Virus record (IMG/VR): IMGVR_UViG_3300025133_000022
Location: 62,001-126,000 of that record
Reading direction: 5' to 3' (one strand)
Source of the DNA: a virus
DNA: 64,000 nucleotides
Part shown: positions 6,133-51,390 of the stretch, in pieces
Position numbering within the stretch: position 1 is the first letter of the stretch
Layout: every line of letters begins with the position of its first letter
Notes under the pieces: generated by a model
What the model was told of the DNA's origin: nothing
The model's database searches: none
The model's input: only the letters and a program-made list of their open reading frames with translations
Made by a program: the position numbers and the translations under genes

Positions 6133-6146
6133 CTTTAGAGAATGCA

Positions 6147-6617: not shown

Positions 6618-6654
6618 ATGTATTTGAATACTTAGTATTTCCTATTTACTTTTT

Positions 6655-6730: not shown

Positions 6731-6858
6731 ACAAATACATCTAAGTGCATCCAGACCTTACAGGCAACCCAAGGGTCAAGCCTGCAAGTGAAACTGTACA
6801 TTTGTGGGTACACAAACCCCGTGAGACCGTTCTCGACACGTTAAATCGGAGGACACAC
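6731..6858 (+). other. Structured spacer before RNA unit 2
   Basis: No open reading frame of note. Contains hairpins CAGGC/GCCTG, TTTGTG/CACAAA and GAGA-CCG-TTCTC. It may be a structural domain of the RNA elements or simply a spacer. Confidence 0.4.
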
Positions 6859-12211: not shown

Positions 12212-12826
12212 ATGAAAATCGTATTTATAACAGGAGCTGGTATTAGCACAGCCTCTGGACTCCCCACATACAGGGGGGCCAATGGACTCTACGGCAATGA
12301 GCCAATAGAAGACGGTTACAGAATTGATGAAATCCTAAGTAGAAAAATTGCAAACATAAGACCAGATTTATTTAATAAATATCATGGTCAAATTGAAAAA
12401 GCTATTGCATTAGTTGAACCCAACACTATGCACTATGCTATCGCTGCTCTTCAAGAGCAGCACGATGTACGTATTTACACTCAAAACATCGATGACTTAC
12501 ATGAACGTGCGGGCAGCAAGCATGTTGTTCATCTGCACGGTGGAGGAGCTGAAAAAGAACCAGTCATTCTGTTCGGAGACTACTTGGATCCACAGAAGCT
12601 AAAGTGGATGAAGGCAGCCTGCAAGGCTGCTGATATACTGGTGCTTGTGGGCAGCTCTGCTGCCTTCCACTACATCCAAAGACCTTTCAAGAAAGCCAAG
12701 TATGACCACCCACAGGTCTTTATTCTAGACCCTGATCCACAACATCCACTGGCTGACACGGGTGTACACAAGAAGAATCCAAGCGAATACGCAGACATCA
12801 TCAAAATTATTCCAGAACTATTCTGA
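12212..12826 (+). CDS. Sirtuin (Sir2-family NAD-dependent deacylase or NAD hydrolase)
   Basis: 204 residues with the full Sir2 signature: FITGAGISTASGLPTYRG (NAD binding), YTQNIDDLHERAGSKHVVHLHG (Gln-Asn and catalytic His), and LVGSSAAFHY. The four zinc-ligand cysteines of many sirtuins are absent, making a compact member. Sirtuins remove acyl groups using NAD; some in bacterial defence degrade NAD. In a phage either modification of host proteins or NAD handling is possible. It stands alone between a terminator and tRNA-Ile. Confidence 0.9.
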   Translation: MKIVFITGAGISTASGLPTYRGANGLYGNEPIEDGYRIDEILSRKIANIRPDLFNKYHGQIEKAIALVEPNTMHYAIAALQEQHDVRIYTQNIDDLHERAGSKHVVHLHGGGAEKEPVILFGDYLDPQKLKWMKAACKAADILVLVGSSAAFHYIQRPFKKAKYDHPQVFILDPDPQHPLADTGVHKKNPSEYADIIKIIPELF

Positions 12827-12842
12827 TAATAATTCAACTTAC

Positions 12843-12914
12843 GGACCTGTAGCTCAGCGGTAGAGCATTCGTCTTATATGCGATAGGTCGGAGGTTCAAA
12901 TCCTCTCAGGTCTA
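12843..12914 (+). tRNA. tRNA-Ile(TAT)
   Basis: Acceptor GGACCTG/CAGGTCT, D arm GCTC/GAGC, anticodon loop CTTATAT (TAT), T arm GGAGG-TTCAAAT-CCTCT. A second TAT tRNA besides permuted unit 3. Confidence 0.87.
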
Positions 12915-12937
12915 CTAAATTAACAAGAGAAATAAAA

Positions 12938-13303
12938 ATGATTAAATCACAAACAGTAAAAATGATTAGCTGCAATGACCTAGATTGCATGGTGCAAGAA
13001 GTCTACGAACGTCCCTATTGTTTCCAACAACAAAATGGATGCAAACCCAGGGGGATAGAAAGAGTAACCATCCCCACACTTGGTGAAGACTATGAAAACG
13101 ATACCATTTCTGAAGAAGCCAACAGTATGGGGGTTTCATTCAATGCCTGGCTTAAGCGAGACCCAGAAAAAACCACTGGTTATGGCTCAGTAGGACGATG
13201 CTGGGAAAGGAATTTCTACCCACACTTAGACATGGTTTTGAACGATCTGCATAAACGAGGTCTCGTTGCTGCAGGAGAATACATCATCAACATCGATTGG
13301 TAA
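12938..13303 (+). CDS. Protein of unknown function
   Basis: 121 residues, ATG 12938 behind AAGAGA. It has paired Cys residues near the N-terminus (CNDLDC) and a pattern TIPTLGEDYENDT. No domain recognised. Confidence 0.7.
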   Translation: MIKSQTVKMISCNDLDCMVQEVYERPYCFQQQNGCKPRGIERVTIPTLGEDYENDTISEEANSMGVSFNAWLKRDPEKTTGYGSVGRCWERNFYPHLDMVLNDLHKRGLVAAGEYIINIDW

Positions 13304-13315
13304 CCATCAGTACAT

Positions 13316-13387
13316 GCACCGTTAGTTCAATGGATAGAATGCTCGGCTACGAACCGAAGGATAGGGGTTCAAGTCCCTTGCGGTGTA
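13316..13387 (+). tRNA. tRNA-Arg(ACG)
   Basis: Acceptor GCACCGT/GCGGTGT, anticodon arm CTCGG-CTACGAA-CCGAA (ACG), T arm AGGGG-TTCAAGT-CCCTT. Confidence 0.9.
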
Positions 13388-13404
13388 CTATACAAGGAAA
13401 CAAT

Positions 13405-15734: not shown

Positions 15735-18376
15735 ATGAACCAGGTACCATTGTATATTATCAACTTGGACGACAGCGTCCCACTGCCTGGTGGTACGTTC
15801 GTATTAGATGTTCAAACAGAAAAACTGCATTTATTCAGCAGTGTCGAATCATACAACAAGCAATATGTTATTATTGGTATAGCTGATTGTCCAGACCCAA
15901 CAGAAATACTCGAAGACCCTACATCTGCCCTTGAGCCTTTGCTACAAGTAGGGGTCATGTGTCAAATCACAGAAACAGAAGCTGCAGACACCTTCACGGT
16001 ATATACTCTTCAGGTACTGCATCGAGTCTTGATTAGAAATATCAATAGAAACAAAAGTGAAGACGACCCATATACTCTTTGGGTTCAGCAAGAGCCTATA
16101 GCAGAAGAATTTCTCCCCGCAGAAGAAGAACTAAAGAGAGACATTCAAGATATGATTGGAATATTTCTCCGTAAAGAACAAATCTGGGCAGGTATGTCTG
16201 ATTCAACTATCAAGACACTGCGCTCAGATGAGCATCTTTTGAAAAAGATGCATCTTATGGCAGGGCACATGCTATCAGGTATTGAACGATTAGACTATTT
16301 GCAACAACTCAGCAATGTTGACAGATGGAATAAAGTACTAACTGTGGCTAGCAAAAAACTAAGCGCACAAGCGAGAGCACTACCTCCCCCCGTCTCTAAG
16401 AAAATAGACAAACCTAAAAAGAAAGGTAAGAAACTACTTACTTGGAGAGAACGAGTTGCAGAGAGCGACATGCCTGATGCCGTACGAGAGAAAGTACTAC
16501 GCGAAGTCAGCAAGTTGGAATCTACTCCAAAAAACAGTACCGAGTATGCTCAGACAGCCGACTACCTTCGATGGACTCTAAGCGTTCCATGGGGTAAAAC
16601 AAGCTACATACCAACAGACCTACGCAAACTCCACAGCAAACTAGACGAAACACACTACGGTTTAAGTGAAGTGAAAGAACACATGCTTGAAATCATGTGT
16701 GTCCAAGAGCTTCACGAAGGCTCCACGGGCTCTGTGCTTTGTTTTGTAGGCCCTCCCGGCACAGGCAAAACCACCATCGCAAAATCTATTGCAGACGTTT
16801 CAAATCGTCCACTTATTAGAATTGCCCTAGGTGGACTCAGCGATACTGCTGAATTTCGAGGTTAAGCAAAATGGCCTCGCGTGTTGGCAACAGCACGAAA
16901 ACAATTCCATTAATTGCTGGAACATCCTAATGACAAAGTCAAGGACAATCAGCAGCTAGATATTAGTGGTCACCACATGTTACATTAACTCTATAACCAC
17001 GGAGTTAACAATGAAATATCATGTAGGCGACACACTTGGTTCGTTTCTACTCATCAATAAAGATGGAGTAAAATGGACCGCAAAATGCACATGTGGAAAC
17101 ATTTGGTCAACAAGATTGATACGACTAAAAGGCCGTACCAACTGCCCCAAATGCTCACCGCCACGATCTTATAAGCAAAGACAACCAGGTGAAACAATTA
17201 ACAGCCACACCTTACTTGAACGATTACCATCTAGAAAATGGAAAACTCAATGTAAGTGTGGAGCAACTAGAATATGTTCACCAGCTGATCTTAAAAGATA
17301 CGATACATGTAAAGCCTGCTACGATCCTGAGAAAGTAGCAGGCCAACTCCGACTTCCTCCTAAAGAGAAAGAAACTAATTATCGTATCCGCTACTACAAA
17401 AAACATGCTAAAGAAAGAAACTACGATTGGGAATTGACAAAATTTCAAACCCAAACACTACTTCAAAGCATATGCAACTATTGTGGTAGCGAAAATGCTC
17501 AAGGCATTGACAGAGTAGACAACTCTCAAGGATATACAATTAGCAACTGTGTCAGTTGCTGCAATTTTTGCAATCATGCAAAGAAAAACTATCCTAAAGA
17601 AGAGTTTCTTAATCATATTAAGCGCATTTATGAATATCAGTTCAGAGACTATCCCGAAAGGGAGTACAGCCAAGCGGCTGGAAACATGGAACCCCCACGT
17701 GGGTGAAGATATAGTCCGATCTACATGGAAACATGTAGCAGCGAAAGCGAGTGTAGCCTAGCGAACTACGCTGAACACCATGCATAGACGTACATACGTA
17801 GCCAGCAGACCAGGACGACTCATCTCCGAACTAAAAGAGAAGGGCAGTATGGATCCACTCATCCTTTTAGATGAAGTTGATAAGCTTGCTCACTACAAGG
17901 GCGACCCAGCAGCAGCCCTATTAGAGATCTTAGATCCAGAACAAAACGATCATTTTGTAGACCACTACTTGGAAGTGCCAGTAAATCTAAGTAAAGCAAT
18001 GTTCATTTGCACAGCCAATTACGAAGAAAAAATTCCACAACCACTACTAGATCGTATGGAACTAATCAGGTTCCGAGCTTACGATGATGCTGAACGCGAC
18101 ATTATTACAAAACAATTTCTGCTGCCAAAAATCCAAGCTCAAGAAAACAATACAAATCTACCAGTAACCTTCGAAGATACAGCTTTAACTAGAATAGCTA
18201 AGATTCCACAAGTAAGAAAAATCGAGAAGATTTTAGCTAAGCTTGTTCGCCGAGGAGTTACCCAAGTCCATGTACATGGGAAGAAAGAATACGTCATTAC
18301 AAATGATGATGTATCAAAAATTAAACACAACTATGTGTCAAAATCCGATCGAAAAATAATTGGATTCAGGAAATAA
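15735..18376 (+). CDS. Lon-like AAA+ ATPase lacking the protease domain, two exons
   Basis: Exons 15735-16862 and 17783-18376 encode about 573 residues. The order is an N-terminal Lon substrate-binding domain (residues 1-190), a basic linker, then the AAA+ module with Walker A CFVGPPGTGKTT and, in exon 2, Walker B PLILLDEVDKL. Exon 1 ends LGGLSDTAEFRG and exon 2 resumes HRRTYVASRPGRL, the uninterrupted Lon motif. After the AAA+ lid (KIEKILAKLVRRGV) the protein stops: the Ser-Lys protease domain of Lon is absent. It could unfold or remodel proteins, or feed a separate protease. The genome also encodes two ClpP-like proteins. Confidence 0.88.
16863..17782 (+). mobile_element. Group I intron in the lon-like gene
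   Basis: 920 bases. The exon ends in GGT (U before the intron) and the intron ends in G, as in group I introns. Core elements are visible: a P/Q pair AATTGCTGG and AATCAGCAGC near the 5' end, and GAAGATATAGTCC (P7 3' strand region) near the 3' end. It carries an HNH endonuclease gene. Insertion is in the conserved Lon motif GG(x)DEAEIRG/HRRTY, between Walker A and Walker B. Confidence 0.9.
17011..17706 (+). CDS. HNH homing endonuclease, intron-encoded
   Basis: 231 residues from ATG 17011, which has GGAG just upstream. N-terminal zinc-like repeats (CTCG...CPKC, then CKCG...CKAC) resemble DNA-binding modules of phage HNH enzymes. The C-terminal part CNYCG...GIDRVDN...NCVSCCNFCNHAK is an HNH/GIY-associated type with Cys pairs holding the nuclease fold. 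It would cut intron-less alleles and spread the intron. Confidence 0.82.
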   Translation: MKYHVGDTLGSFLLINKDGVKWTAKCTCGNIWSTRLIRLKGRTNCPKCSPPRSYKQRQPGETINSHTLLERLPSRKWKTQCKCGATRICSPADLKRYDTCKACYDPEKVAGQLRLPPKEKETNYRIRYYKKHAKERNYDWELTKFQTQTLLQSICNYCGSENAQGIDRVDNSQGYTISNCVSCCNFCNHAKKNYPKEEFLNHIKRIYEYQFRDYPEREYSQAAGNMEPPRG

Positions 18377-32783: not shown

Positions 32784-35036
32784 ATGAGAGAACAACTACA
32801 AACCAGAACAGAAGAGTCCCACGGAGAGCTTAGTAGCGCCCATTTCGGAATTAGCATATCTGATCAAGCTCACGTTATTGGCATTCTAAGAAACCGACTA
32901 TACTCTGATAAAATCATGGCCGTACTTCGTGAGTACGGCACTAATGCGTGGGATGCACACGTCGAAGCAGGTCTTAAAAACAAGCCTATCAAAATCACCT
33001 TGCCAAGCAGGTTCTTGCCAACTCTACGTATTAGAGACTTTGGTCCCGGTATTCCAGAGAAAAACATCTTCGATGTGTATTGCCAGTATGGCAACAGTAC
33101 TAAACGTGAAACAAATACTGCAGTAGGTATGCTCGGTATTGGATGTAAGTCCGGCTTTGCATATTCTGATACATTTACTATTGTCAGTTACCATGCTGGC
33201 ATGAAGAAAACCTATGTCGCATTTATTGACCCAACAAACCTTGGCAAAATGACCAAGCTTGCCGAAACAGAATGTGGCAGCGAAACTGGTGTTGAGATTC
33301 AGATCCAAACCCAAGCCAATGATGTTGACGCATTTCGTAACAAAGCTAGAAGTCTATTCAAGTATTTCAACCCAAGACCAGAAATCAACTGCATACTACC
33401 CATTCGAGAATACACTAACACAGGTACTGGGTGGGCGCTTCGCAGCAAGAACAACAACGATACAGATTCTGGTCCAATTGCGATTATGGGTAACATTGGC
33501 TACCCGATCAAACCCCAGCGCTTAGACAAGCTGCCAGAAAATCTAAAGTCCTTGCTCAATGTTAACATTGACATGCTGTTCCCTATAGGTGCCGTAAGTA
33601 TTGCAGCCAGCAGAGAAGATTTAGAGTACACAGACAAAACTCTGAACGCAATCAGAACCACCCTAGAAATGTGTTTGCGTGAGCTAGAGGTAAATGTAAA
33701 AGAATCTCTAAGTAAAGCAAAAACATTACACGAAGCAAGAAGTACTTTTGTTAAAACAGCAGGTAAAAAATATTCCTGGACCAACAGAAATGGACGACAA
33801 CAAAACTTATCTTGGATTGTCGCTATGGCACACAAAATGTGGAGATCACCAACCACCGGAATCGCATACGACTTAAGCAATAGTGTTTTCTCGCCTCTCC
33901 GTAATAATAAAAACTTACAAGTTCGTGCACTAATGCCAGGAGCCTATCAAACGATAGGTCTTACTTCCAGAGGCACAACCTTTGATCATGGTCAGAATAT
34001 TATTATCGCCCTGTGTGATGTAAAAAGCCAATGGGTTGGTCGCACAGATAATCTTCGTGAAGAATTGCTGTCCAAAAAAGCTATCAATTATCATATTCTA
34101 ATTGTAAAACTGCTCGACGATGACATAAAAGTTAGCTCGGCAGCATACAATAAATGGCTTCAAGAATGTGAGCTTGAAGGCACACCTACTTTCAAGCTAA
34201 GCGACTACGAAGGCAAATCCATAAGAGGCCCTGCAGCTTCACCAAAGACAAGAAATAAAAAAACCGTAAAGAAAGTTTTCAAACTGAAAGCCGACACCTT
34301 TGTTTCTCATGTTAGCGCACCAAGTGACAACTATGAAACATACACCGCAGACTTGAAAAACGGTAGCGGGATATGGATGGAAATCTACACATTTCGTCCA
34401 GTGCTTAGCACTAATGCGATTCTAAAAGAACAGTTGAGCAACTTGCGTGCCATCGGTATCGATTTGTCTAAAACAGATATCATTGCTGTAAAAACAAAAG
34501 AGAAAGAAAAAGTTGGCAAAAAATGGACTCTGTTTGAAGACTGGTACGAGAGCAAGCTTAGTCAATTTGTTAAAAACAGCCCCGATATCGACAAGCTTCT
34601 GAAACTTCAAGCTGTCAAACAGTCTGTCAATGAAAGAGCAAGGTACAATTACAGAAATCGCGCAAACAGTCTTGTCAATATTGGCGGATTGCCAAAGACC
34701 CATACGCTAGTTAAGTTTTTCAATGAAGTCTGGGAAACCCTAGACGCAAGTGGACAAGCTGACATAAATGAACAAAAGAGACAGAAAATTATCTACAATG
34801 CGATTAGTGCATTGCCAGATGACAAACGACCAAAATCAAGCTATAATTTGTATGAAAAACGAACTGCAATTGTAGAACTTTACCCGATGCTTCAACATTC
34901 ACAAGTGTTTCAAATCGGGTATTGGGGAGACGGATATTACAAGTCCAACCCAGCCACAGCTGGCGCCATGCCAAAAGACGAAGCAACAAAAGTTGCAGAA
35001 TATATACAACTTGTAGACAAAAGTAAGGAAAAATAA
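32784..35036 (+). CDS. rIIA: rIIA-like protein (GHKL ATPase)
   Basis: 750 residues with an AAGGAGGTA site. The N-terminal 200 residues are a GHKL ATP-binding fold: MAVLREYGTNAWDAHVEAG (Glu and Asn), IRDFGPGIPE, and GMLGIGCKSGFAYSDTF. This matches rIIA-like proteins of T4-type and other large phages, which protect against exclusion systems by an unclear, membrane-linked mechanism. It overlaps the rIIB-like gene by one base, the standard pairing. Confidence 0.88.
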   Translation: MREQLQTRTEESHGELSSAHFGISISDQAHVIGILRNRLYSDKIMAVLREYGTNAWDAHVEAGLKNKPIKITLPSRFLPTLRIRDFGPGIPEKNIFDVYCQYGNSTKRETNTAVGMLGIGCKSGFAYSDTFTIVSYHAGMKKTYVAFIDPTNLGKMTKLAETECGSETGVEIQIQTQANDVDAFRNKARSLFKYFNPRPEINCILPIREYTNTGTGWALRSKNNNDTDSGPIAIMGNIGYPIKPQRLDKLPENLKSLLNVNIDMLFPIGAVSIAASREDLEYTDKTLNAIRTTLEMCLRELEVNVKESLSKAKTLHEARSTFVKTAGKKYSWTNRNGRQQNLSWIVAMAHKMWRSPTTGIAYDLSNSVFSPLRNNKNLQVRALMPGAYQTIGLTSRGTTFDHGQNIIIALCDVKSQWVGRTDNLREELLSKKAINYHILIVKLLDDDIKVSSAAYNKWLQECELEGTPTFKLSDYEGKSIRGPAASPKTRNKKTVKKVFKLKADTFVSHVSAPSDNYETYTADLKNGSGIWMEIYTFRPVLSTNAILKEQLSNLRAIGIDLSKTDIIAVKTKEKEKVGKKWTLFEDWYESKLSQFVKNSPDIDKLLKLQAVKQSVNERARYNYRNRANSLVNIGGLPKTHTLVKFFNEVWETLDASGQADINEQKRQKIIYNAISALPDDKRPKSSYNLYEKRTAIVELYPMLQHSQVFQIGYWGDGYYKSNPATAGAMPKDEATKVAEYIQLVDKSKEK

Positions 35037-36022
35037 TGATCCCAAGAATTATCACTAACACAACAGTCACCATCCACCTAGAAGGTGACATTATCTCAGC
35101 CAATGCTCAGCATCCAGCATTTGATCAAATCAGAGAAGCAGCCTTGGCACAGGATTGGAATCAAGTTCGCACACTAACAAACGTAAGTGAAGCTATTAAA
35201 GTCTGGTCTGACAATGAATTTGAAATCAATGACGACCAGGTTCTATACAATGGAACTCCGGTTCCATCAGAACTTGAAAAACGCATTTTGGCTTTCGTAG
35301 AAAGCAAAGTTGACTTTAGCCACCTGTTGACTTTTTACCGCAAGCTAATCAAGAACCCAAGCCGCAGGTCTGTCCAGCAACTCTACAAGTTTCTTGAGCA
35401 TGAGTCTATTCCAATCGGAGAAGACGGGTGCTTCTACGCATACAAAGCTGTCCGACAAGACTGGATGAGCTACGGAGCTGACAGACGCACTGGCGAAAGA
35501 CAACTCAACAAGATCGGCATGACACCCACCATGCCTAGAAATGAAGTCGACGACGACCCTACTCGTGGTTGCTCTTATGGCTTTCACGTTGGATCCCTTG
35601 CCTATGCTAGTGGCTTCGGCGGCGGCGGCAGCAAGTTGCTTATCTGTCGTATCTCACCTGAAAACGTAGTTAGTGTCCCGCATGACTGCGCGCACCAAAA
35701 ACTGCGTTGCAGTAGCTACACAGTTGTACAAGAATACGTTGGCCCTCTTCCAGATACTTTCTGGAGTCCAAACCAACCTGACTATGACGATGGTGTGTTC
35801 GAGAACTCTCCTACAGACACTCGCATTGCCAGTATCCAAGCAGAGATGGAAGAGTCCGAAGACCAGCTAGAGCGCCTGCAGACAGCGCTAGAAGCTGCAG
35901 AAGACGCTGAGGTAGGGCAGACAGTACTAAACGGTCTGCTGAACGCCATGACGGATGTTGAAGGCATCCTTCAGCGTCTAGAAACAGATCTAGCTAGCTT
36001 AAATGAGCCCTACGAGGGTTGA
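35036..36022 (+). CDS. rIIB: rIIB-like protein
   Basis: 328 residues starting in the last base of rIIA. The region SVQQLYKFLEHESIPIGEDGCFYAYKAV, then NEVDDDPTRGCSYGFHVGSLAYA and VVSVPHDCAHQKLRC matches the rIIB family. The C-terminus is an acidic coiled coil. Expected to work with rIIA against phage exclusion. Confidence 0.88.
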   Translation: MIPRIITNTTVTIHLEGDIISANAQHPAFDQIREAALAQDWNQVRTLTNVSEAIKVWSDNEFEINDDQVLYNGTPVPSELEKRILAFVESKVDFSHLLTFYRKLIKNPSRRSVQQLYKFLEHESIPIGEDGCFYAYKAVRQDWMSYGADRRTGERQLNKIGMTPTMPRNEVDDDPTRGCSYGFHVGSLAYASGFGGGGSKLLICRISPENVVSVPHDCAHQKLRCSSYTVVQEYVGPLPDTFWSPNQPDYDDGVFENSPTDTRIASIQAEMEESEDQLERLQTALEAAEDAEVGQTVLNGLLNAMTDVEGILQRLETDLASLNEPYEG

Positions 36023-37051: not shown

Positions 37052-37274
37052 CTGGAACAACGACTCAACCAAAGACGAACTGCAAGCCGAACTTGTCCGA
37101 CTAGAAAGACTGCACGAACGAAACAGATCCAAGTACCTAGAACTGCAAGCCAAAGTTAAGAAATTACAAGCAGAAAACAAAGAACTCAAAACCAAACTAG
37201 GCAAAGAGCAAGACGCCAATCTCGATAAAAGCACCCTGCATTTTTCGGATCTGTTTGGAGGTTTTAAATTTTGA
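37044..37274 (+). CDS. Coiled-coil protein preceding dnaE
   Basis: 76 residues, almost wholly charged coiled coil. Its TGA overlaps the TTG start of the polymerase N-terminal gene, so translation is probably coupled. Confidence 0.68.
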   Translation: MSNWNNDSTKDELQAELVRLERLHERNRSKYLELQAKVKKLQAENKELKTKLGKEQDANLDKSTLHFSDLFGGFKF

Positions 37275-38599
37275 GCAACTTCGTACACTTGCACATGCAC
37301 ACCGAATACAGCACACTCGATGGCATCAACAGGATTGAAACTCTGCCCGACCACATCATAAGCTTGGGTCAGAAAGCCGTGGCTATCACAGACCACGGCA
37401 ACATCAGCGGCAGCTACAAATTTGCCAAGAGCTGTAGAGCCAAGGGCATCAAGCCTATCATTGGCCTAGAAGCCTATTACACTCCACATGACGCAGCAGT
37501 GCGCGAACTAGACGATCTGGGAAAGAGGTACTATCACATGGTGCTCCTGGCCAAGAACGGAGTAGGCTTGAAGAACCTCCGATGGCTAAGCACCAAGGCG
37601 TTTACTCAGGGCTTCTACGCGAAGCCACGATTGGACGATCGCATCATTGCTGATCACTCAGAAGGCATCATTGCTACAAGCGCATGCCTGGGAAGTAGGA
37701 TCAGTCAGCTGATTCTAAACGACCGTAAGGTCGAAGCAGAAAAAATGCTACTGCACCACAATGCGATATTTAAAGACAGCTTCTTCATCGAAGTACAGTT
37801 ACACCCCATGGGTGAGCAACAGCTAGTCAACCAAGTGTTGTTAGACATTGCGAAGAGGCACAGTCTGCCGCTCATCCTTACAAACGACTGCCACTACACT
37901 CACGAGCAAGACAAACTGCTGCACGAAAAGGCACTATGCATGAGTACTAATGCCAAAATGAGTGATCCACCATGGGACCCTGAACGCAAAGCCAAGGGTC
38001 TTACTGGAAAGACCCGATTTAGTTTCGGGCCCATCGATGTACATGTAGCACACCATGACTGGATGTGGAAACATGCACAAGCTCAAGGAATTCCCTATGA
38101 AGCAATTAGTAACACTGCTGCAGTGGCAGACAGTATCCGTGATGATCAATACTTCATGGATATTCGTAACAGATATCCCCGCTATCAGCATGTTGACACT
38201 GGGGAAACTAGCTGGAACGCTTTAGAGTACTTAGCAAAAGAACTTCTTTGGAAAAAAATGAACGGTCAAGTACCAGAAGTCTATCGAAATCGCATGGATC
38301 ATGAACTTGGAATCATTAAAAAAATGGGGTTCTCTGACTATTTGCTTATTGTTCATCAATTTTTAGAAGGGGCTCGGAAAGAAGATGTCTTTATTGGTCC
38401 AGGTCGAGGTAGTGCTGCCGGAAGTCTAGTCAGCTACGCACTGGGTATCACCCAAGTGGATCCAATCAAATACGGACTTGTATTTGAACGTTGGCTTAAC
38501 TACGGTCGTGCTGCTCAGCCAATTTTATTTGACCAACACATGGTGCAGCAAATCAAGAGCATGACACCTGTAAAAGCGCCATGCTCTCATAGTCATTAA
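37271..38599 (+). CDS. dnaE: DNA polymerase III alpha, N-terminal gene (PHP domain and start of the polymerase core)
   Basis: 442 residues from TTG 37271 behind TTTGGAGG. The PHP domain begins FVHLHMHTEYSTLDG with metal-binding His residues and ITDHGNISG, LTNDCHYT further on. The last part, IGPGRGSAAGSLVSYALGITQVDPIKYGLVFERWLNYGR, is the start of the DnaE polymerase core. It then ends in a His-rich tail (KAPCSHSH) before the catalytic Asp motif, which is in the separate C-terminal gene 1.7 kb downstream. The two products must assemble for activity. Confidence 0.9.
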   Translation: MSNFVHLHMHTEYSTLDGINRIETLPDHIISLGQKAVAITDHGNISGSYKFAKSCRAKGIKPIIGLEAYYTPHDAAVRELDDLGKRYYHMVLLAKNGVGLKNLRWLSTKAFTQGFYAKPRLDDRIIADHSEGIIATSACLGSRISQLILNDRKVEAEKMLLHHNAIFKDSFFIEVQLHPMGEQQLVNQVLLDIAKRHSLPLILTNDCHYTHEQDKLLHEKALCMSTNAKMSDPPWDPERKAKGLTGKTRFSFGPIDVHVAHHDWMWKHAQAQGIPYEAISNTAAVADSIRDDQYFMDIRNRYPRYQHVDTGETSWNALEYLAKELLWKKMNGQVPEVYRNRMDHELGIIKKMGFSDYLLIVHQFLEGARKEDVFIGPGRGSAAGSLVSYALGITQVDPIKYGLVFERWLNYGRAAQPILFDQHMVQQIKSMTPVKAPCSHSH

Positions 38600-39318
38600 G
38601 TAGGTATGGCAACCCAGCCATCTCGTACAGTGAAAGTGACACTCTTTACATAGCCTGAATTGTCATGAAACATAACTCTTGCATCATTGGGAGCAGTTAT
38701 GCTTCCGATGCTTAAGCTCATTGTCTCCTGGCTTAATATATTCTCATCGGAATCAAGAAGGCATGCCATCACGGAAACTTCTGCTGCAGAATCTACATAC
38801 CAGTAGACTAGCAATGCAGAAGGCTCCGTGCTTTGTTCGTCATCCCCACCGGAGCCAACATTACCGACACCACTGGTAATCGAGGCTTCCCAGTCACCTC
38901 CACTGTGTTTGAAAGCCCAAGCGTTAACCCAGGTCGTGCTAAACTTTAAACCTATCCCAATGGCGGCATTAGACCATGTCCCAGTAATATCACTTAAATT
39001 CAATCTAGTGATGTACATAAACTGATCAGCATCCCAAGTGCCGTCAACACCTGGGTCAAGCTGCACGGCTAAACTTTGACTTGAAAGAACTGAGTGTGCT
39101 GTAGCGTTTGTGGTCAGGGTATTCGAAGTACCGAGACTGCTACTATCAAGTGCCCCTTGGGTATCGGTGATAGTGTTGCCAACAAGATCTCTGTTTGAAA
39201 GAGTGGCCGCTGGGCTTCCACCCCCGCCAGAAGCAGTAGTATCATTAAGAGCCTCTCCTGAGAGAGGCCCTCCACCAGTTACTGTAACTTGTACCTTACT
39301 ATTGGTTGGACCCGACAT
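38596..39318 (-). CDS. Virion-like beta-rich protein, inverted island
   Basis: 240 residues on the minus strand, third in the reverse operon. Gly/Ser/Thr-rich N-terminus, then strand-rich sequence (WDADQFMYITRLNLSDITGTW, TWVNAWAFKHSGGDW) resembling lectin- or fibre-like folds of virion proteins. Its last bases overlap the end of the polymerase N-terminal gene on the other strand. Confidence 0.7.
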   Translation of the reverse strand: MSGPTNSKVQVTVTGGGPLSGEALNDTTASGGGGSPAATLSNRDLVGNTITDTQGALDSSSLGTSNTLTTNATAHSVLSSQSLAVQLDPGVDGTWDADQFMYITRLNLSDITGTWSNAAIGIGLKFSTTWVNAWAFKHSGGDWEASITSGVGNVGSGGDDEQSTEPSALLVYWYVDSAAEVSVMACLLDSDENILSQETMSLSIGSITAPNDARVMFHDNSGYVKSVTFTVRDGWVAIPT

Positions 39319-39321
39319 GCA

Positions 39322-39729
39322 TCACCAACAAACGATAGTGATCGTACTGCCAGAACTCAGACTTAAGGCATCAATTTGCAAACTAGCAACATTTAAACCT
39401 TCTGCAGTCTCAAGAACAGTACTCCCAGTGCTTTGATAACTAGGAAAGCCACCAGCCCAAATCTCAATAATAGGGTTGTTGTAGATCCCATACATTTGAT
39501 CAGTCTTGCTAAAAGCTTCATCAGCTCGACGCTTCTTATGAATGCGTTGGAGATTGTTCAGCGTGTAGTCAATTGTGTCGGCAGCATCTGTCATGATGAA
39601 TTGTAGACGCCTTGCTGGGCGTCCAAGAACATTGGTGAAATCAATTTGATCACCAGCAGCAACTGCAGTAATCTCAGCACTTCGCTGAGAGCTTGGAATA
39701 GATTTGGAAACAGGCGTATAAGTTGCCAT
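39322..39729 (-). CDS. Virion-like protein, inverted island
   Basis: 135 residues on the minus strand. Beta-rich with ITAVAAGDQIDFTNVLGRPARRLQF and a C-terminal strand GSTITIVCW. It looks like a small structural protein such as a head or tail decoration protein; not identified. The next start follows within a few bases. Confidence 0.68.
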   Translation of the reverse strand: MATYTPVSKSIPSSQRSAEITAVAAGDQIDFTNVLGRPARRLQFIMTDAADTIDYTLNNLQRIHKKRRADEAFSKTDQMYGIYNNPIIEIWAGGFPSYQSTGSTVLETAEGLNVASLQIDALSLSSGSTITIVCW

Positions 39730-39740
39730 CGTAAAACTCC

Positions 39741-40235
39741 TTAAGGATTGTTAATGATTAGTGGTGCGGAATCATAATGCACATCAACAAAACCAACTGG
39801 AGTCCCAGTCATTTTCGCTGTTGCTTGCAAAAAGAAATAATCGCCAGCTTCAGTAAGCCGCGCATCTTCACTTGTAAATGAAAAATTGGCAAAACCGCCA
39901 TCGCCAGCACCACCTGCAAGAGTACAGGTAGCAATACGAACAAATGCAGCATTGCGAAAGCGATATATTTCAAGATCATACTGCCCACCACTGCCATCGC
40001 TCATTAAATGAAAGTGAATGCTAGACATACGAAGAGCACTATCGACTCCAACACGGCCATAATTCGCAGCAGCAGCCCAGCTAAAAGTATTTGGTTGCCC
40101 AAGGACCGAATCTTTATCAACAGGATCGTTAAACCATTCAACCCCAGGCTGATAGGCAAGGGCAGTCATACTAAAACGAAGCTCACCAATAGTGTTTCCG
40201 TCAATAGTAATTCCTGTCATATAGTCAACAGGCAT
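39741..40235 (-). CDS. Virion-like protein, first gene of inverted island
   Basis: 164 residues on the minus strand. ITIDGNTIGELRFSMTALAYQPG and later FANFSFTSEDARL, DYFFLQATAKMTGTPVGFV suggest a beta-sandwich. It begins 60 bases from the start of the divergent polymerase C-terminal gene, so the gap must hold divergent promoters. Confidence 0.68.
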   Translation of the reverse strand: MPVDYMTGITIDGNTIGELRFSMTALAYQPGVEWFNDPVDKDSVLGQPNTFSWAAAANYGRVGVDSALRMSSIHFHLMSDGSGGQYDLEIYRFRNAAFVRIATCTLAGGAGDGGFANFSFTSEDARLTEAGDYFFLQATAKMTGTPVGFVDVHYDSAPLIINNP

Positions 40236-40295
40236 CGAAACTCCAAATTATATTTAATATTACCCACATCACCAACCGGGAGACCGAGCAAATCT

Positions 40296-43200
40296 ATGAA
40301 AAAACTAATTAACAAAATCAAAACCCACTATAACCAAAACCGATTGGCACTTGTCGATCAAGATTTTCTATCCTTTGAAGAAGATCTTAGCACAAATCAA
40401 GATCTAGAGCTAGTAGAACTAGCCCTAACACATAATCTCAAATTTGTAGAAAACCCAACCAATAGCATCATCTTGTACCTAACTGGTCTTACTGACCAGT
40501 TCGACAATGAGAAAGCTAGAGCTGACACGAGAGGTGGCTCTCCCCCTGACATTGACATCGACTTTGAAGCCCTTGGTAGAGACAAGGCGGTCGATTGGGT
40601 GGTTGAAGAGTGGGGGCGAAATCATGTTGCAAACATTATGACCCAAGGCACCTTTAAGCCCAAGAGTCTTACAAGAAGATTTTTCAAGATCACTGAGGGA
40701 GACCAAGAAGTCATGAGAGAAATCCTTCGAATGATCCCGCCCCCACACTTTGGCAAAGAACCAAAGTTAAAAGAAATCATTGAAGGTAACAAAGACAAGG
40801 GCTATGTAGCCCATCCAGAACTAGCTACTGCTCACAAGTACAAGGAATGGTATGAATTCACCAAGAAACTGGAAGGAATGGTTGCTAACTTTGGCATCCA
40901 CGCAGCTGGAATCGTTATCAGCGACTTCCCCATCCCAGACACCATTCCCTGCTGGAAAAACAGCAAGAGCGAATTCATTACCCAATACGACATGCACGAA
41001 GTTGAAGAACTAGGAAGCATCAAGTTTGACTTCCTGGTAATCAACAATCTAGACATCCTGAAAGAATGCGTACGACTTATTAAACTAAGACACAACATCG
41101 AATACGATATTTATAATGTGCCTGACGGAGATGAAAAGGCTTACGAACTCATGGCTCAAGGACTGCTAACCGGCGTCTTTCAAATGGAGACCAGTGGATC
41201 AGCCAAAAAACTGATCCAACGCATCAAGCCTACCAACTTAGAAGAACTTAGCGACATTAACGCATTGAATCGACCTGGACCAATGGAAGCAGGTCTAGAC
41301 GAAGCCTATGTAGTAAACAAGACCAATGGCTACGCTCCCAAGGACATGCCTCCTGCTCTTGCAGAAATTCTAAAAGGAACCTATTGGACTCTGGTGTATC
41401 AAGAGCAAATCATGCGACTGGTATCCGAACTGGCAGGATTCACGCTTCAAGAGGCAGATGACGTTAGACGAGCAATGGGTTGACAACACTTTAGCATAGC
41501 GCTATGGTACTTCATACAAGGAGTACTTATGCAAACCAAAATCACAGATGAAAAGAAGCTAGAAATTGCTCTAGCTTACCAGCAGGGTCAAAGTACAATA
41601 GAGATTGCAAACAACTACGGCTGCTCGACTACCATAGTTTACAGAGCTCTGAAACTGCTTGAGACTCCTAGGAGAACTGGTGGCCATCAGCCACCAAACT
41701 TCAAAGATACTTACTTTGACCAGATCAACACAGAGGAAAAAGCCTACTTCCTAGGCTTAATCATCGCAGACGGAAGCGTATGTCAGCCCTCCAGGGGCGG
41801 TCAAAAAATTTTCCAGTTGGAACTCCTTGAGCAAGACAACAAGCTCATTGCCCAACTCTGCCAAGAACTCCAATACCCTCTGTCCAGGATTAAAACTTAC
41901 CAGCGAACAGGCAGATCAGCTACAAGCAAAGTCTCAATTACCTCAAACCAACTAGCTAAAAGCCTAGCAAAATACGGAGTGGTTGCAGACAAAGCCCCTT
42001 GGACTGAACTACCCACAATAGACGCAAGCCTGATGAGACATGCTCTTAGAGGACTGTACGATGGCGATGGAAGTATTGCCAAGTACAGACTCGTACTGAC
42101 AGCAGGCAACACAGTGATTCTAAACCAAGTGCGTGACCATCTGATCAGCACCTTAAGCCTGAATCCAAAAGCCATTAGAATCTACAAAACAGGAGAAAGA
42201 GCCTGGGCTCTTTCTATCAACAGAAAGCTGGAAAGACAATCTGTGATGAAGCACCTCTACCAAGATGCTTCTGTCGCTATGCAAAGAAAAGCCCGCTGGC
42301 TGGGCAACCAGTCAGAATAACCATTCCGTGAATTCAGAGAAAGCCCAGAGGTGGGTAACCCTGAGCCAAGCTGTAGAGGAATCTACAGAAGGTGCAACGA
42401 CTAGTGAATACAATCCAGAACGGATTATGAATCACCACGAGCGCGGAACATCCCAAGCGGATGAAGATATAGTCTGAGCTACGCCAATAGCCTAAAAAGA
42501 AAGCGTAGAAGCTCAGGATAAAGAGCCTGAGCGATAACAACACTGAAAAAGAAAGTCTCCGTGCTGGAGAAGTACAGAGACCCCTTCATTAAAGGCTGTG
42601 TAGACCACAATATCAATAAGCAATATGCAGAAACTCTTTGGGACGACACTCTACTTGGTTTTGCTAACTATTGCTTTAACAAGTCCCACAGTCTGGCATA
42701 CAGCGTCATCACCTACCTTTGCGCTTTTTTCAAAGCACACTACCCTACTGAGTTCTTCACCTCGTTGATGACTATCCGATCTCAGGTGATGCAACCAAAA
42801 CTATGGGCGCAGAAAGCGCCCCAGTTCGTTAGCGAGGCCAAGAAGATGGGAGTACGTGTTCACGCACCCTACATCCAGAAGTCCAAACTTGGCTTCACCA
42901 TTGAAGACGATGAAATCTACTTTGGTCTCAATGCCATTAAGCAAGTAGGAGTAACAGCTTGCCGAAGCATTATTGCTGCAAGAAAGCGGGGAAACTTTAA
43001 AGACATCTGGGACTTTTTAGCTCGAGTCAACAGACAGAAAGTTACCACCAGAACCTTTGAGGCCCTGGTAAGAGCGGGTGCGTTCGACCGCATGGGTTAC
43101 CTACGGTCAGAACTACTCGAAAAGACTAAAGACATCTATTCATTCTTCAACAACAACATTGAATATGAAGAAAGAATCCAAAATCATAAAATTAGAGCAG

Positions 43201-43907
43201 CTGAAAATCAAAAAAAAGATGCACGCCGTACAGAAATTCAAAAAGAAATCAAGAATGCTAAAACACTTATCAAGCAAATGAAAAAAGAAAAGCTGAATGT
43301 GCCTGCATTTCTACAACATGCTGCCGACTATGACAAAAGATTAAGAAACGTAAGACAACAGATTCGTGCAACCGGGTTAAAGCCAGAAGAAACATTGTCA
43401 GGAAAAGACCTACAAGAGTATAACGAATCTTTGACTCTTCGAAAAAAACCAGAACTCAAGTTGAAAGACAAACCAATTCAGCCAGAGCTTACTAGAGTTA
43501 GAGCTGTAAAGATAAGCGTCGCAGAATTAATGGAACAAGCAGATTTCATTGGATGCTATCTTCATGACCATCCAGCTCCCGTCTTGTATCCAGATACTAC
43601 CCGCATTGCCAACGCACAACAAGGTGACTACCTAGGCATGGCAGGGCAAATTACCAACTGGAAGCAAATCAAAACCAGAAAGGGAGATGACATGGCTTTC
43701 GCCCAGATGGGCGACGGTACTGGTCTCGCAGAACTAATAATCTTTCCATATGTGTACAAAAGACTCAAAGCCAGTGGTAAACTACCAGAGCCAAGAGATA
43801 TTGTTCGGGTTAGATGTGAAGTAGAAACAGCTGGAAACGAAGATAGCGAAGAAAATGGTGAAATTAAAGTCATCGTTAAAGATATCGAAGTCTACCAGTC
43901 CAAATAG
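40296..43907 (+). CDS. dnaE: DNA polymerase III alpha, C-terminal gene, two exons
   Basis: Exons 40296-41480 and 42546-43907 encode about 848 residues. The catalytic pair is in SPPDIDIDF, and the third Asp in IKFDFLVINNLDIL. Exon 1 ends in the conserved QEADDVRRAMG and exon 2 resumes KKKVSVLEKYRDPF...GFANYCFNKSHSLAYSVITY, the normal DnaE order. A coiled segment, helix-hairpin-helix and an OB domain (GDYLGMAGQITNWKQIKTRKGD) follow. The N-terminal 80 residues before the catalytic motif have no counterpart I recognise. Together with the N-terminal gene the total is about 1290 residues. Confidence 0.9.
41481..42545 (+). mobile_element. Group I intron in the polymerase C-terminal gene
   Basis: 1065 bases. 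The exon ends GGT and the intron ends G. The core is clear in the 3' half: CCCTGAGCCAAGC (Q), GCAACGACTAGTG (R, P7 5' strand) and GAAGATATAGTCTGAG (S). The endonuclease gene starts 48 bases into the intron, so it sits in a peripheral loop near the 5' end. Splicing restores the DnaE motif RRAMG-KKK. Confidence 0.92.
41529..42320 (+). CDS. LAGLIDADG homing endonuclease, intron-encoded
   Basis: 263 residues with both motifs, AYFLGLIIADGSV (about residue 77) and ALRGLYDGDGSI (about 176), so a single-chain two-motif enzyme. An N-terminal helix-turn-helix (TIEIANNYGCSTTIVYRALKLL) probably helps DNA binding. ATG 41529 follows AAGGAG. It should cut intron-less polymerase alleles. Confidence 0.92.
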   Translation: MQTKITDEKKLEIALAYQQGQSTIEIANNYGCSTTIVYRALKLLETPRRTGGHQPPNFKDTYFDQINTEEKAYFLGLIIADGSVCQPSRGGQKIFQLELLEQDNKLIAQLCQELQYPLSRIKTYQRTGRSATSKVSITSNQLAKSLAKYGVVADKAPWTELPTIDASLMRHALRGLYDGDGSIAKYRLVLTAGNTVILNQVRDHLISTLSLNPKAIRIYKTGERAWALSINRKLERQSVMKHLYQDASVAMQRKARWLGNQSE

Positions 43908-46594: not shown

Positions 46595-46858
46595 ATGAAT
46601 ACATTCTTCTTCGTTAAGGTAAGACTAGGAAAAACACAAGGGCGCCGAAGCTGGAGCTTCGGACCCTTTGTTCAATTTGAAGACGCAACTCGCCTTCTAG
46701 ACCATATCCCAAAACTCATTATAGGAATGGGTTCAATTCCAAATCGATATACAATGACAATTGAAGAACGCCACTTGACTCAAGGCAAGTGGGTCAAACT
46801 TAATACAAGAAGTAAACTTACAGTTAGTGAAAACATGGTAGTAACAGAATCTAGATGA
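46595..46858 (+). CDS. Small protein of unknown function
   Basis: 87 residues immediately after the nuclease stop. Beta-rich with a basic loop. Overlaps the GMP reductase-like gene by 4 bases. Confidence 0.65.
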   Translation: MNTFFFVKVRLGKTQGRRSWSFGPFVQFEDATRLLDHIPKLIIGMGSIPNRYTMTIEERHLTQGKWVKLNTRSKLTVSENMVVTESR

Positions 46859-47901
46859 CACATATATTAGACAACAAAACATTAGCAGCCGACGATGTGC
46901 TATGCGTACCAGCCATGGGAATCCTGCCCAGCAGGTCTGATGCGAAGATAGCGCCGTTTATCTACAGCGCCCCTATGGACACGGTAACAGGCTACACCTT
47001 AACCAAAGAGCTTGTTGAGCTGGGTCACTTCCCCGTGGTTAGTAGAGCTTTAAAACGAGATGAATGGTTGCGAACCTTAAGAGAATTCGCAGGTCACCCA
47101 CAGGTCTTCTTTGCGATCGGTCTAGACCGAAATCAATTAAAAAACCTAATAGATACACTGATAGAGATGGAAATTGACAAGCCAATTAACTTGGCAATTG
47201 ACATTGCTCATGGAGATATGAAGCAAGCTCACGAACTGGCTGCCTATCTTTCAGAACTGGGCATTTGCCGCTTTATTATGAGCGGTAGTATCTGCACTCC
47301 TTCAGCTGCAATACGAGCTACAATGAATGGCTGCACTCACCTGCGAGTTGGTGTCGGTCCAGGCAGTGTATGCAGCACACGATTAATGACAGGTTGTGGA
47401 TATCCTCAGCTTAGTGCAATCTATCAAATTGCCAAGCTGGGGCCACGTGCCCAAATCATTGCTGATGGAGGAATCAGAAACTCTGGCGACGCAGTCAAAT
47501 ATCTTGCAGCTGGAGCCAACGGAGTTATGCTAGGCGGTCTTTTGTCAAAAACAGTAGAAGCTACTGGGTGGGAGTTTGTTGGGTGGGAGCAACCGCCTAC
47601 AGACGGCACAATATCTTTCCCTATGCCAAGCCCAGAACCCATCTATCAAAAGAACTTTCGAGGGCAAGCAAGCGCATCATTCATGCGCGAACATGGAAAA
47701 ACTCACGCATGTCCTGAAGGCATAGAGAAAACTATCACCTGGGAAGGTGACAAGTTAAAACATACAGTTAAAAGTTTTGAAGCTGGTATAGCCGGTGGCA
47801 TAAGTTTGCTTGGCCTTACTAGCATTGAAGAACTTGGTCCTGAAACTGTAGAAATGGTGCAGGTCACCAACAGTGCAATCTTGGAAGGAAAACCACAATG
47901 A
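46855..47901 (+). CDS. GMP reductase / IMP dehydrogenase-family enzyme
   Basis: 348 residues, a TIM barrel of the IMPDH/GMPR family. LRVGVGPGSVCSTRLMTGCGYPQLSAI carries the catalytic Cys and the G-C-G-Y-P-Q variant typical of GMP reductase. ADGGIRNSGDAVKYLAAGANGVMLG binds phosphate. There is no CBS domain. GMP reductase makes IMP from GMP, so the phage may redirect purine pools. IMPDH activity cannot be excluded without alignment. Confidence 0.85.
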   Translation: MTHILDNKTLAADDVLCVPAMGILPSRSDAKIAPFIYSAPMDTVTGYTLTKELVELGHFPVVSRALKRDEWLRTLREFAGHPQVFFAIGLDRNQLKNLIDTLIEMEIDKPINLAIDIAHGDMKQAHELAAYLSELGICRFIMSGSICTPSAAIRATMNGCTHLRVGVGPGSVCSTRLMTGCGYPQLSAIYQIAKLGPRAQIIADGGIRNSGDAVKYLAAGANGVMLGGLLSKTVEATGWEFVGWEQPPTDGTISFPMPSPEPIYQKNFRGQASASFMREHGKTHACPEGIEKTITWEGDKLKHTVKSFEAGIAGGISLLGLTSIEELGPETVEMVQVTNSAILEGKPQ

Positions 47902-48924: not shown

Positions 48925-51390
48925 ATGTACATTACGAACAAAGAAGAATTAGTAGACGAATTAAAGCCACGCCTTCGTGAATATCTTACAATGATGCTAG
49001 GCGCCGAAGCACAAAAAAAGCAGTTTTGCTGCTATGTACATCAAGAAAACACACCCAGCATGGCATACAACCCAAAGACCGGCTTCACCACCGTTCATTG
49101 TTTTGGTTGTGGTGTAAGTCATGACATCTTTGACGCATGTGAGGAGCTAGAGGGACTGCCTGCGCGTGGATCTGACTGGATTACACAAACGCTACCCCAC
49201 TTGGCGGAAAAGCTAGGTGTAGAAGTACGCCTCGGAGAAGCAAGCCCCACCGATCGAGCTAAAGGCAAATTATATAAACTATGCTCAGACATTACCAAAG
49301 TTTTAAGTGGTACCACATCTCATATCAAGTACCTACAGGAACGGGGCTGGTCTGACAAGTATTTGAAATTTGGCAACATTCCAATTGAAGACTTAAAAAG
49401 TCAACTAATAGAAATGGGCTGGAGTCACTCCGACTTGGACACCAGCCTGATGATCGAAAGCAGTCGACAGCCATATTTTGGAGAAGACATGTCTATGACG
49501 GTAGTCATTGAAGACTACCGTGGGCGTCCTATCGGATTTCAAAGCAGAAGAATAGAAGGCAAGCCCAAATACATCAACACTCCAGAAACTCTTATCTACG
49601 AGAAGAGAAAAACTCTTCTCGGTCTTAATACCGCACTTAAGCTAGCACGCCATCAAGGACTCTACATCGTCGAAGGACCTGGTGACTTGGCGTCACTTCA
49701 TCGTGCCGGTATTGAAAACGCAGCAGCTCTATGCGGCAGTAGCTTTACAGCTGACCATCTACAGCTACTCAAAATGCTAGGTATCAGGAGAGTGTACTTT
49801 GCACTGGATTGGGAAGAGAGTGGCTACAAGGCTGTCCACAGAATCTTAAAGGAAGAACTTCGGTTTGCCCCAGGTGTGAGTTGCTATGTAGTGGCAGCTC
49901 CAAAAACAGGAGAAAAAGATCCATGCGACTTCATCAACAGTCTCAATATTGATGAAGCTGAAGTAGCGTGGAGCACCTTAAAAAAGATTCCTGCTTTTGA
50001 CTGGGTCATAGATAGAATCGGTGAAAACAGCACACCTGAAGACCTGTGTGAAGAGATGGTTCCAATCATCGCAAGTGAGGAAACCGCTGTACGTCGAGAA
50101 ATGTTCGTCGCCAGTCTTGCGCGCCAAACTGGCATCAGTCATCAAGCCATTGATCAAGATGTTCGGAACATTCGTGACGGAAAAACCAAAGAAAGAAACG
50201 ATAGGCACCTAGCTGCTGGAGAACAATATATCCGCGCACTGCGTGATGAACCTGGTAACGCACAATCACTTCTAGCCGAATATGAATCCAATATAGAGTA
50301 TATTGAAAAAGAATTCGGAAAGAACACGATTGGCGTTAACTATCAACTCAGCAAGTACGAAGCACTTCAAGAAAAACGCGCAAGAGAAGCAGAGGCTGGT
50401 ATCGTTGGTGAATTCACTATGGCTCACTACACTCAGTTCAAAGAAGCTTTCTCAGGAGGTGCCACCTGGACTGATGGTGTACTCGTGTACTTTGGTGGGC
50501 GAGAAAATAGCGGCAAAACCGCTACCGTTATTGGGCTGGCTATGGACATTGCGATTAACGATTCTGACGCCATCGTATTGATGCACTTTACTGACGATTC
50601 GTTTGCACAGGTCGAGCCACGACTTAAAGCAAATATTGGCTTAATGATCAAAAACCCTGGGGACCCAACCCTTACTATTGGTATGACTAACAACCCTGTC
50701 AGATGCGAAACACCTGAAGAAAGAGCATGTTACTTTGCTGCAGATGAAAAATTCAGACAACTGATTGCAGATGAAAAACTAATCATCCTAGATATGGAAG
50801 ACGGCAGCACTCTCAGTACGTTGGAAAAAAACCTTCGGCACATCCGACGTAAGCATCCAGAAAGAAAGCTATTTGTAGTTTGTGACAACACTCACAACTA
50901 CATGGACTACCTTCAGCTGGACCAACCTACTCGTATGACTAGGATTTCTAATACTCAAAAGATGCTTACCGGCAAGTACCATTGCGCTATCTTCGCAACT
51001 GCAGAATATCGCAAGAACGCAGCCAGCGACTCCAGTAAGATGAAGCTACCAACCAACGATGACCTTGCAGACGCAAGAGCATTGAAGTACCGTCCCAACG
51101 CTATCATTCACGTCTACAATGACTTGAATGACCGCATGGATGATGCAGAAATTTTCTGGGAAAGCGATCACCAACGAGGTGAGCGACTACCTCGACTCAT
51201 GTTAGTAGTGTCTAAAAACAAAATCAGCAAATACAAAGACAAACTCATGATGGATCTTGACCCAGTCACTGTTTGTCTTCGCGAATACGATACGAATAGA
51301 GCCAGAGAAGAATCTGAAGAATTCTTCGAGAAAAAAGAAAACGGTGAAATCACCGTACAAGATGGTGTGATCGTAGAAGCAGACTGGTAA
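48925..51390 (+). CDS. Bifunctional primase-helicase
   Basis: 821 residues. The order is a zinc-binding domain (FCCYVHQENTPSM...HCFGCG), a DnaG-like TOPRIM domain (YIVEGPGDLASL and YFALDWEESG), and from about residue 500 a DnaB/RecA-type helicase with Walker A VYFGGRENSGKTA. Such single-chain proteins resemble T7 gp4 in layout. It would unwind DNA and make primers for the split polymerase. ATG 48925 follows the kinase stop directly. Confidence 0.88.
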   Translation: MYITNKEELVDELKPRLREYLTMMLGAEAQKKQFCCYVHQENTPSMAYNPKTGFTTVHCFGCGVSHDIFDACEELEGLPARGSDWITQTLPHLAEKLGVEVRLGEASPTDRAKGKLYKLCSDITKVLSGTTSHIKYLQERGWSDKYLKFGNIPIEDLKSQLIEMGWSHSDLDTSLMIESSRQPYFGEDMSMTVVIEDYRGRPIGFQSRRIEGKPKYINTPETLIYEKRKTLLGLNTALKLARHQGLYIVEGPGDLASLHRAGIENAAALCGSSFTADHLQLLKMLGIRRVYFALDWEESGYKAVHRILKEELRFAPGVSCYVVAAPKTGEKDPCDFINSLNIDEAEVAWSTLKKIPAFDWVIDRIGENSTPEDLCEEMVPIIASEETAVRREMFVASLARQTGISHQAIDQDVRNIRDGKTKERNDRHLAAGEQYIRALRDEPGNAQSLLAEYESNIEYIEKEFGKNTIGVNYQLSKYEALQEKRAREAEAGIVGEFTMAHYTQFKEAFSGGATWTDGVLVYFGGRENSGKTATVIGLAMDIAINDSDAIVLMHFTDDSFAQVEPRLKANIGLMIKNPGDPTLTIGMTNNPVRCETPEERACYFAADEKFRQLIADEKLIILDMEDGSTLSTLEKNLRHIRRKHPERKLFVVCDNTHNYMDYLQLDQPTRMTRISNTQKMLTGKYHCAIFATAEYRKNAASDSSKMKLPTNDDLADARALKYRPNAIIHVYNDLNDRMDDAEIFWESDHQRGERLPRLMLVVSKNKISKYKDKLMMDLDPVTVCLREYDTNRAREESEEFFEKKENGEITVQDGVIVEADW

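What the first reader, a model, noticed from the sequence alone, without database searches (positions are those of the whole stretch)
37271..43907. DNA polymerase III alpha split into two genes by an inverted virion-gene island
The N-terminal gene ends after FERWLNYGR plus a His-rich tail, and the catalytic PDIDIDF lies in a second gene 1.7 kb away. Between them are three minus-strand genes with virion-like beta-rich products. No intein motifs are seen at the break, so two polypeptides likely assemble. It looks like insertion or rearrangement at a loop of the polymerase that tolerated separation.
Basis: partly seen in the sequence, partly recalled or inferred. Interest (0 to 1): 0.75.

Follow-up and report, generated by a model that had tools for sequence, protein, structure and literature searches.

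The report
Phage DNA polymerase III in pieces
This virus of bacteria makes its DNA-copying enzyme as two separate protein chains cut right beside the active site, an old arrangement shared by a whole group of related viruses and not the recent work of the gene island that now lies in the gap.

Summary
The split is real but partly misread. The phage's only detectable replicative polymerase (DnaE/Pol III alpha; no PolA or PolB found) lies in three coding pieces. The first break, just before catalytic PDIDIDF, shows no intron or intein. Every close viral-contig relative (54% identity or more) with both halves on the contig is split at this same place: one clade, SH-aLRT 100. Both new ends are conserved: a chain-1 tail GRxATPLIF and an ~83-aa extension of chain 2. 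The gap ranges from 251 bp to 4 kb. A minus-strand gene of the 39322-39729 family sits there in deep branches; unrelated plus-strand genes replace it in another branch. A more distant contig has a matching segment uncut, as an inserted palm domain in one open frame. Best reading: an obligate two-chain polymerase, cut inside an inserted domain, with the dNTP-binding motif on one chain and the catalytic aspartates on the other. It works like split gp43A/B and NrdA of T4-type phages.

The parts
37271..38599 (+). dnaE chain 1 (442 aa, TTG start): PHP domain and first part of the palm with GPGRGSAAGS and FERWLN
   Evidence: Pfam PHP and DNA_pol3_alpha; phrog_405 positions 41-440; aligns to Taq and E. 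coli Pol III alpha
38510..38596 (+). Conserved tail of chain 1 after the break (AAQPILFDQHMVQQIK... ending PCSHSH)
   Evidence: Conserved with stop codon in relatives; non-synonymous change below synonymous. The Cys/His ending is limited to part of the clade
38596..39318 (-). Island gene 1 (240 aa), unknown function
   Evidence: ORF; no Pfam, PHROG or PADLOC hit
39322..39729 (-). Island gene 2 (135 aa), unknown function; family recurs in the dnaE gap of relatives
   Evidence: ORF; HMM matches in the gap of L015, L017, L018, L019 besides L012, L013; single copy in own record
39741..40235 (-). Island gene 3 (164 aa), unknown function; homologue in the gap of L002/L013
   Evidence: ORF; 45% identity in L002; single copy in own record
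40296..40544 (+). N-terminal extension of chain 2 (residues 1-83), conserved in the split clade, homologous to the insert of L083/L091
40296..41480 (+). First exon of dnaE chain 2: extension, then PDIDIDF palm and fingers to RRAMG
   Evidence: Pfam DNA_pol3_alpha 97-259 and finger domain; Taq 459-770
41481..42545 (+). Group I intron (ends set by reading frame and RRAMG|KKK motif; catalytic core 42257-42493)
   Evidence: RF00028, 62.9 bits, E 2e-14; splice test
41529..42320 (+). LAGLIDADG homing endonuclease ORF inside the intron
   Evidence: Pfam LAGLIDADG_3 and phrog_4645
42546..43907 (+). Second exon of dnaE chain 2: end of fingers, HHH and OB domains
   Evidence: Pfam HHH_6 and tRNA_anti-codon; spliced chain 2 of 848 aa is 49% identical to unbroken L004 homologue

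Best explanation
The phage's Pol III alpha is made as two chains that must assemble. Chain 1 (442 aa) carries PHP and the dNTP-binding motif GPGRGSAAGS. Chain 2 (848 aa after removal of a group I intron) carries the three catalytic aspartates and everything after them. The cut lies inside a palm insertion of about 110-120 aa that a more distant lineage keeps uncut; the leftover ends, a chain-1 tail and a chain-2 extension, are conserved and probably form the joint that holds the halves together. The split clade inherited the cut once; genes in the gap have been gained and exchanged since. Shown: three-piece anatomy, one-clade distribution, conservation of both new ends, homology of the extension to an uncut insert, the intron. 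Inferred: non-covalent assembly, polymerase activity, the joint, and how the cut arose (insertion of an endonuclease-bearing element or of a minus-strand gene are both possible).
For: Same split in every relative at 54% identity or more in which both halves can be read, none fused; single clade with SH-aLRT 100. Tail and extension conserved as protein with non-synonymous below synonymous change. Extension matches the insert of L083/L091 (hhalign E 9e-7; hmmsearch E 0.0017 and 0.0097), which in L083 is uncut in one frame with the palm on both sides. GPGRGS motif kept in every chain 1 and D85, D87, D245 invariant in chain 2, matching Taq PDIDTD and KMDF: neither chain has a whole active site. 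No second copy of either half and no PolA or PolB in the record. Precedent: split gp43A/43B co-purify and have polymerase activity, split NrdA is functional (PMC2988022).
Against: No direct evidence of expression, assembly or activity. The match of extension to insert covers only 24 columns; the likeness of the chain-1 tail to the front of the insert is by eye. The insert is absent from the sister group L089/L033/L034, so it must have been lost there, gained twice, or moved. The virus record may be incomplete, so another polymerase could be missing from it.
Confidence: 0.75

Rival explanations
1. A minus-strand gene of the island-gene-2 family inserted into a continuous dnaE and caused the split, but in the ancestor of the clade; the present three-gene island is a later elaboration. 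This concerns the origin and can be true together with the best explanation.
For: Island-gene-2 relatives are in the gap on both sides of the deepest fork: window, L012, L013 and L015, L017, L018, L019.
Against: The branch L020-L032 has plus-strand genes there instead; no relative with an uncut gene and a clean target site was found; L091 has an endonuclease ORF, not such a gene, within the insert.
Confidence: 0.25
2. A homing endonuclease (with or without an intron) fractured the gene inside the inserted domain, then was lost, as proposed for other phage genes-in-pieces. This too concerns the origin only.
For: L091 carries a LAGLIDADG ORF inside the same insert; dnaE in this clade is repeatedly hit by such elements: group I introns in window, L002 and L012, split inteins at FADY|CFNKSHS in others; precedent mobE/NrdA (PMC2988022).
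Against: No endonuclease was recognised in the gap of any split-clade member, though most gap ORFs were only inspected by eye; no Rfam intron around the L091 ORF.
Confidence: 0.35
3. The two halves are rejoined covalently, by a split intein or by RNA splicing across the gap.
For: Relatives use a split intein elsewhere in the same gene and the window splices a group I intron at break 2.
Against: Tail lacks an intein first residue and block A/B motifs; extension lacks a terminal intein motif at the palm junction and has no Pfam intein hit; no Rfam intron in the gap; both ends are conserved as protein up to the stop and from the start codon.
Confidence: 0.05
4. The locus is a decaying pseudogene and the phage uses the host polymerase.
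For: Gene in three pieces.
Against: Catalytic and dNTP-binding motifs, PHP histidines and reading frames are kept across a deeply diverged clade.
Confidence: 0.03

Closest known systems
Split family B polymerase gp43A/gp43B of Aeromonas phages 25 and 44RR
   Same: Replicative phage polymerase cut into two genes with intervening DNA; two chains co-purify and polymerise (PMC2988022)
   Different: Family B polymerase; here family C, cut next to the catalytic aspartates inside an inserted domain, and kept by a whole clade
Split NrdA of Aeromonas phage Aeh1 (mobE insertion)
   Same: Essential enzyme in two peptides that function together, no intein (PMC2988022)
   Different: Other enzyme; cause known there (endonuclease insertion), not here
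Two-gene Pol III alpha of Cellulophaga phages phiST, phi13:1, phi19:2 and Tenacibaculum phage Larrie (Cbastvirus)
   Same: Same cut in the palm between FERFLN and PDIDxDF, two genes
   Different: Genes adjacent; chain-1 tail of about 50-60 aa unrelated in sequence; chain-2 extension short; not close in sequence, probably an independent cut
Cyanobacterial split DnaE with split intein (Npu, Ssp)
   Same: dnaE in two genes; many relatives of the window carry a homologous split intein at the FADY|CFNKSHS site
   Different: Cut elsewhere in the protein and healed by protein splicing; the window itself is continuous there
Jumbo phage MIJ3 split PolB with split intein and HNH endonuclease (PMC6892783)
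   Same: Phage polymerase gene in two parts with a gene between
   Different: Heals by a split intein; not seen at break 1 here

Membership tests
Pol III alpha (DnaE, family C polymerase) | PHP, palm/NTPase, fingers, HHH and OB domains in order | tested here: met
   over three coding pieces
Pol III alpha (DnaE, family C polymerase) | Three catalytic aspartates (PDxDxD and KxDFLG) | tested here: met
   Invariant D85, D87, D245 of chain 2, aligned to Taq
Gene-in-pieces enzyme (split NrdA, gp43A/B type) | One ancestral reading frame now two genes with own start and stop, both conserved | tested here: met
Gene-in-pieces enzyme (split NrdA, gp43A/B type) | The two chains assemble into an active enzyme | not testable with these tools
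Gene-in-pieces enzyme (split NrdA, gp43A/B type) | Homing endonuclease at the cut | tested here: not met
   None recognised in the window's gap; one inside the insert of L091
Split intein / fractured gene | Intein blocks A and B after the N part, blocks F and G before the C part, nucleophile at +1 | tested here: not met
   contrast the real split intein in L016-L019
Group I intron (break 2) | Catalytic core matching RF00028 above gathering score, splicing restores frame | tested here: met
   62.9 bits against 50; 848-aa frame, 49% identity to unbroken homologue
Group I or II intron (break 1) | Rfam intron match in the gap | tested here: not met
   None at E up to 1

The most novel reading that the evidence does not exclude
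A clade of phages replicates with an obligate two-subunit Pol III alpha whose single active site is shared between the chains and held together by a dedicated joint derived from a palm insertion; the same cut arose independently in Cbastvirus phages, so the palm just before the catalytic DxD is a natural splitting point of DnaE.
Probability: 0.5. Interest if true: 0.6.

Novelty: new variant of a known kind. Interest (0 to 1): 0.5.

Why it matters
If true, it is a natural split of Pol III alpha through the catalytic palm, kept by a whole phage clade and apparently repeated in another phage group. It would offer a ready cut site for two-part or switchable DnaE enzymes, and a case in which the steps from continuous enzyme, to inserted domain, to two-chain enzyme can be compared among living lineages. 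It also shows dnaE in these phages as a repeated target of introns and split inteins, including inteins at the very site of the cyanobacterial DnaE split intein.

Tried and rejected
Split intein or intron at break 1: rejected. Chain-2 extension as a degenerate duplicate of the palm segment GSLVAYALGIT: MAFFT kept aligning the two, but profile comparison found no support (7 columns elsewhere). Stop-codon recoding: TAG ends 8 of 41 large ORFs and the chain-1 stop is TAA. Second copies of either half or of island genes 2 and 3 in the record: none. Extension in named phages: no match. Photosystem genes as a host hint: none in 10 records. Close DNA relatives among named phages: none.

Full report
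What is in the window. The window lies in a 192.5-kb IMG/VR virus record. Gene 37271-38599 encodes PHP and the first ~100 positions of the Pfam Pol III alpha domain. The frame ending at 41483 resumes at position 97 of the same domain with PDIDIDF and runs to RRAMG. A third frame, 42561-43907, holds the HHH and OB domains. PHROG 405 is covered in order: 41-440, 441-745, 753-1054. So dnaE is in three coding pieces, not two.

Break 2 is ordinary. Between RRAMG and KKK lies a group I intron (RF00028, 62.9 bits, gathering score 50) with a LAGLIDADG endonuclease ORF. Removing 41481-42545 leaves one open frame of 848 aa, colinear with the unbroken homologue in L004 and 49% identical to it. The exact ends were chosen to keep the frame and the motif; they were not tested on RNA.

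Break 1. Against Taq Pol III alpha (2HPI), chain 1 matches through the FERFLN region and chain 2 starts at residue 459, so the chain is cut immediately before the first catalytic aspartates. No Rfam intron lies there at E up to 1, and the edges show no intein motifs. ATG 40296 is the likely start of chain 2, because homology to relatives begins there.

Relatives. Scans with chain 1, its alignment and the chain-2 alignment gave viral contigs with 54% or more identity as well as more distant ones. Wherever both halves are on a close contig, the gene is cut at the same place and never fused. The chain-1 tail reads GR[AG]ATPLIF in most; the CSHSH-like ending is confined to part of the clade. The chain-2 extension is about 38-58% identical to the window's. 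Non-synonymous change is below synonymous in both ends, though synonymous sites are near saturation, so the ratios are rough. In a 73-row tree the split group (18 rows) is one clade with SH-aLRT 100. Its sister (L089, L033, L034) has a continuous dnaE without insert, and the next group out is L083/L091 (quick method, no bootstrap).

The gap. It holds three minus-strand genes in the window, several genes on both strands in L012, two minus-strand genes in L013, and one main minus-strand gene in each of L015-L019 and L024. The L020-L032 branch has plus-strand genes instead. The distance from chain-1 stop to chain-2 start runs from 251 to 4020 bp. An HMM of island gene 2 built from the window, L012 and L013 finds relatives in the gap of L015, L017, L018 and L019; L016 matches only a wider model that was built with it. 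So one such gene is probably an old resident of the gap and the three-gene island a local elaboration. None of the three proteins belongs to a named family, so 'virion' remains a guess.

An uncut form. In L083 one open frame runs FERFLNPDRLGSPYISTTQLSFDEF...YDNPDNSHLLYAIGCTDDPP...GGAGLCDIDVDF, about 110-120 aa more than a normal DnaE, whose junction there is 5-8 aa. The extension profile of the split clade matches this insert: hhalign E 9e-7 over 24 columns, hmmsearch E 0.0017 for L083 and 0.0097 for L197, the same contig as L091. No other locus outside the clade passes the threshold. L091 has the insert interrupted by a LAGLIDADG ORF. This suggests the cut happened inside an inserted domain. 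The likeness of the chain-1 tail to the front of the insert is by eye only. L083 shows a frame change further upstream, so its gene is not wholly continuous, and the sister group lacks the insert, so its history is not simple.

Function. GPGRGS is in every chain 1, and D85, D87 and D245 are invariant in chain 2, matching PDIDTD and KMDF of Taq. From established knowledge of Pol III alpha the palm needs both parts; assembly is therefore inferred, not shown. No PolA or PolB was found in the record, which may be incomplete. Split gp43A/B and NrdA show that phages can live with such enzymes (PMC2988022).

Known parallels. Cellulophaga phages phiST, phi13:1 and phi19:2 and Tenacibaculum phage Larrie match a chain 1 ending at the same palm site; in phi13:1 and Larrie the next gene was seen to be the rest of Pol III alpha. 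Their tails are unrelated to the window's. PHROG families covering only the N part (7513, 461 aa) or starting near PDID (12219, 823 aa) also fit a cut there, but their members were not inspected. Bacteroides phage BS-TP1 ends its N piece here with a tail weakly like an intein (E 0.0012, below Pfam's cut-off). I found no paper describing this split of Pol III alpha; the library holds only open-licence papers.

Verdict. It is a conserved, probably two-chain Pol III alpha with an additional intron: a new variant of a known kind.

Noticed in passing
window 15735-18376: Second group I intron (RF00028, 45.3 bits, E 5e-10, just under the gathering score of 50; 17556-17738) with an HNH endonuclease ORF (16966-17706), interrupting an AAA+ ATPase gene that looks Lon-like...SDTAEFRG | HRRTYVASRPGR..., phrog_15585 positions 251-393 then 394-576.
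   Followed up: partly
L016 12055-17666; L017 12024-15261; L018 12081-16457; L019 6634-9209: Phage-borne split DnaE intein at FADY|CFNKSHS, the site of the cyanobacterial DnaE split intein; the L006/L017 N half matches the DnaE split inteins of the PDB (E 1e-20). N halves also in L020, L021, L023, L025-L028, L031, L032, L176, L186.
   Followed up: partly
L002 10555-11570 and 12745-13665: Further interruptions of dnaE: a group I intron inside PPD|IDIDF (89.8 bits) and a LAGLIDADG-containing break at FANY|NKSHS.
   Followed up: partly
window 799-13388: Cluster of 15 (ARAGORN) to 18 (Rfam) tRNA genes, including one with a CUA anticodon at 5188-5260; TAG still ends 8 of 41 large ORFs.
   Followed up: no
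window 48925-51390 and 46855-47901: A DnaG-type primase with a weak DnaB-like match at its C-terminus (possible primase-helicase fusion), and an IMP dehydrogenase/GMP reductase gene.
   Followed up: no
window 32784-36022: Two adjacent genes that look by eye like rIIA and rIIB; no Pfam hit.
   Followed up: no
L202 (Bacteroides phage BS-TP1) 2127-3860: N part of Pol III alpha ending at the same palm site with a tail weakly similar to an intein splicing domain (E 0.0012), possibly a remnant of a split intein.
   Followed up: partly
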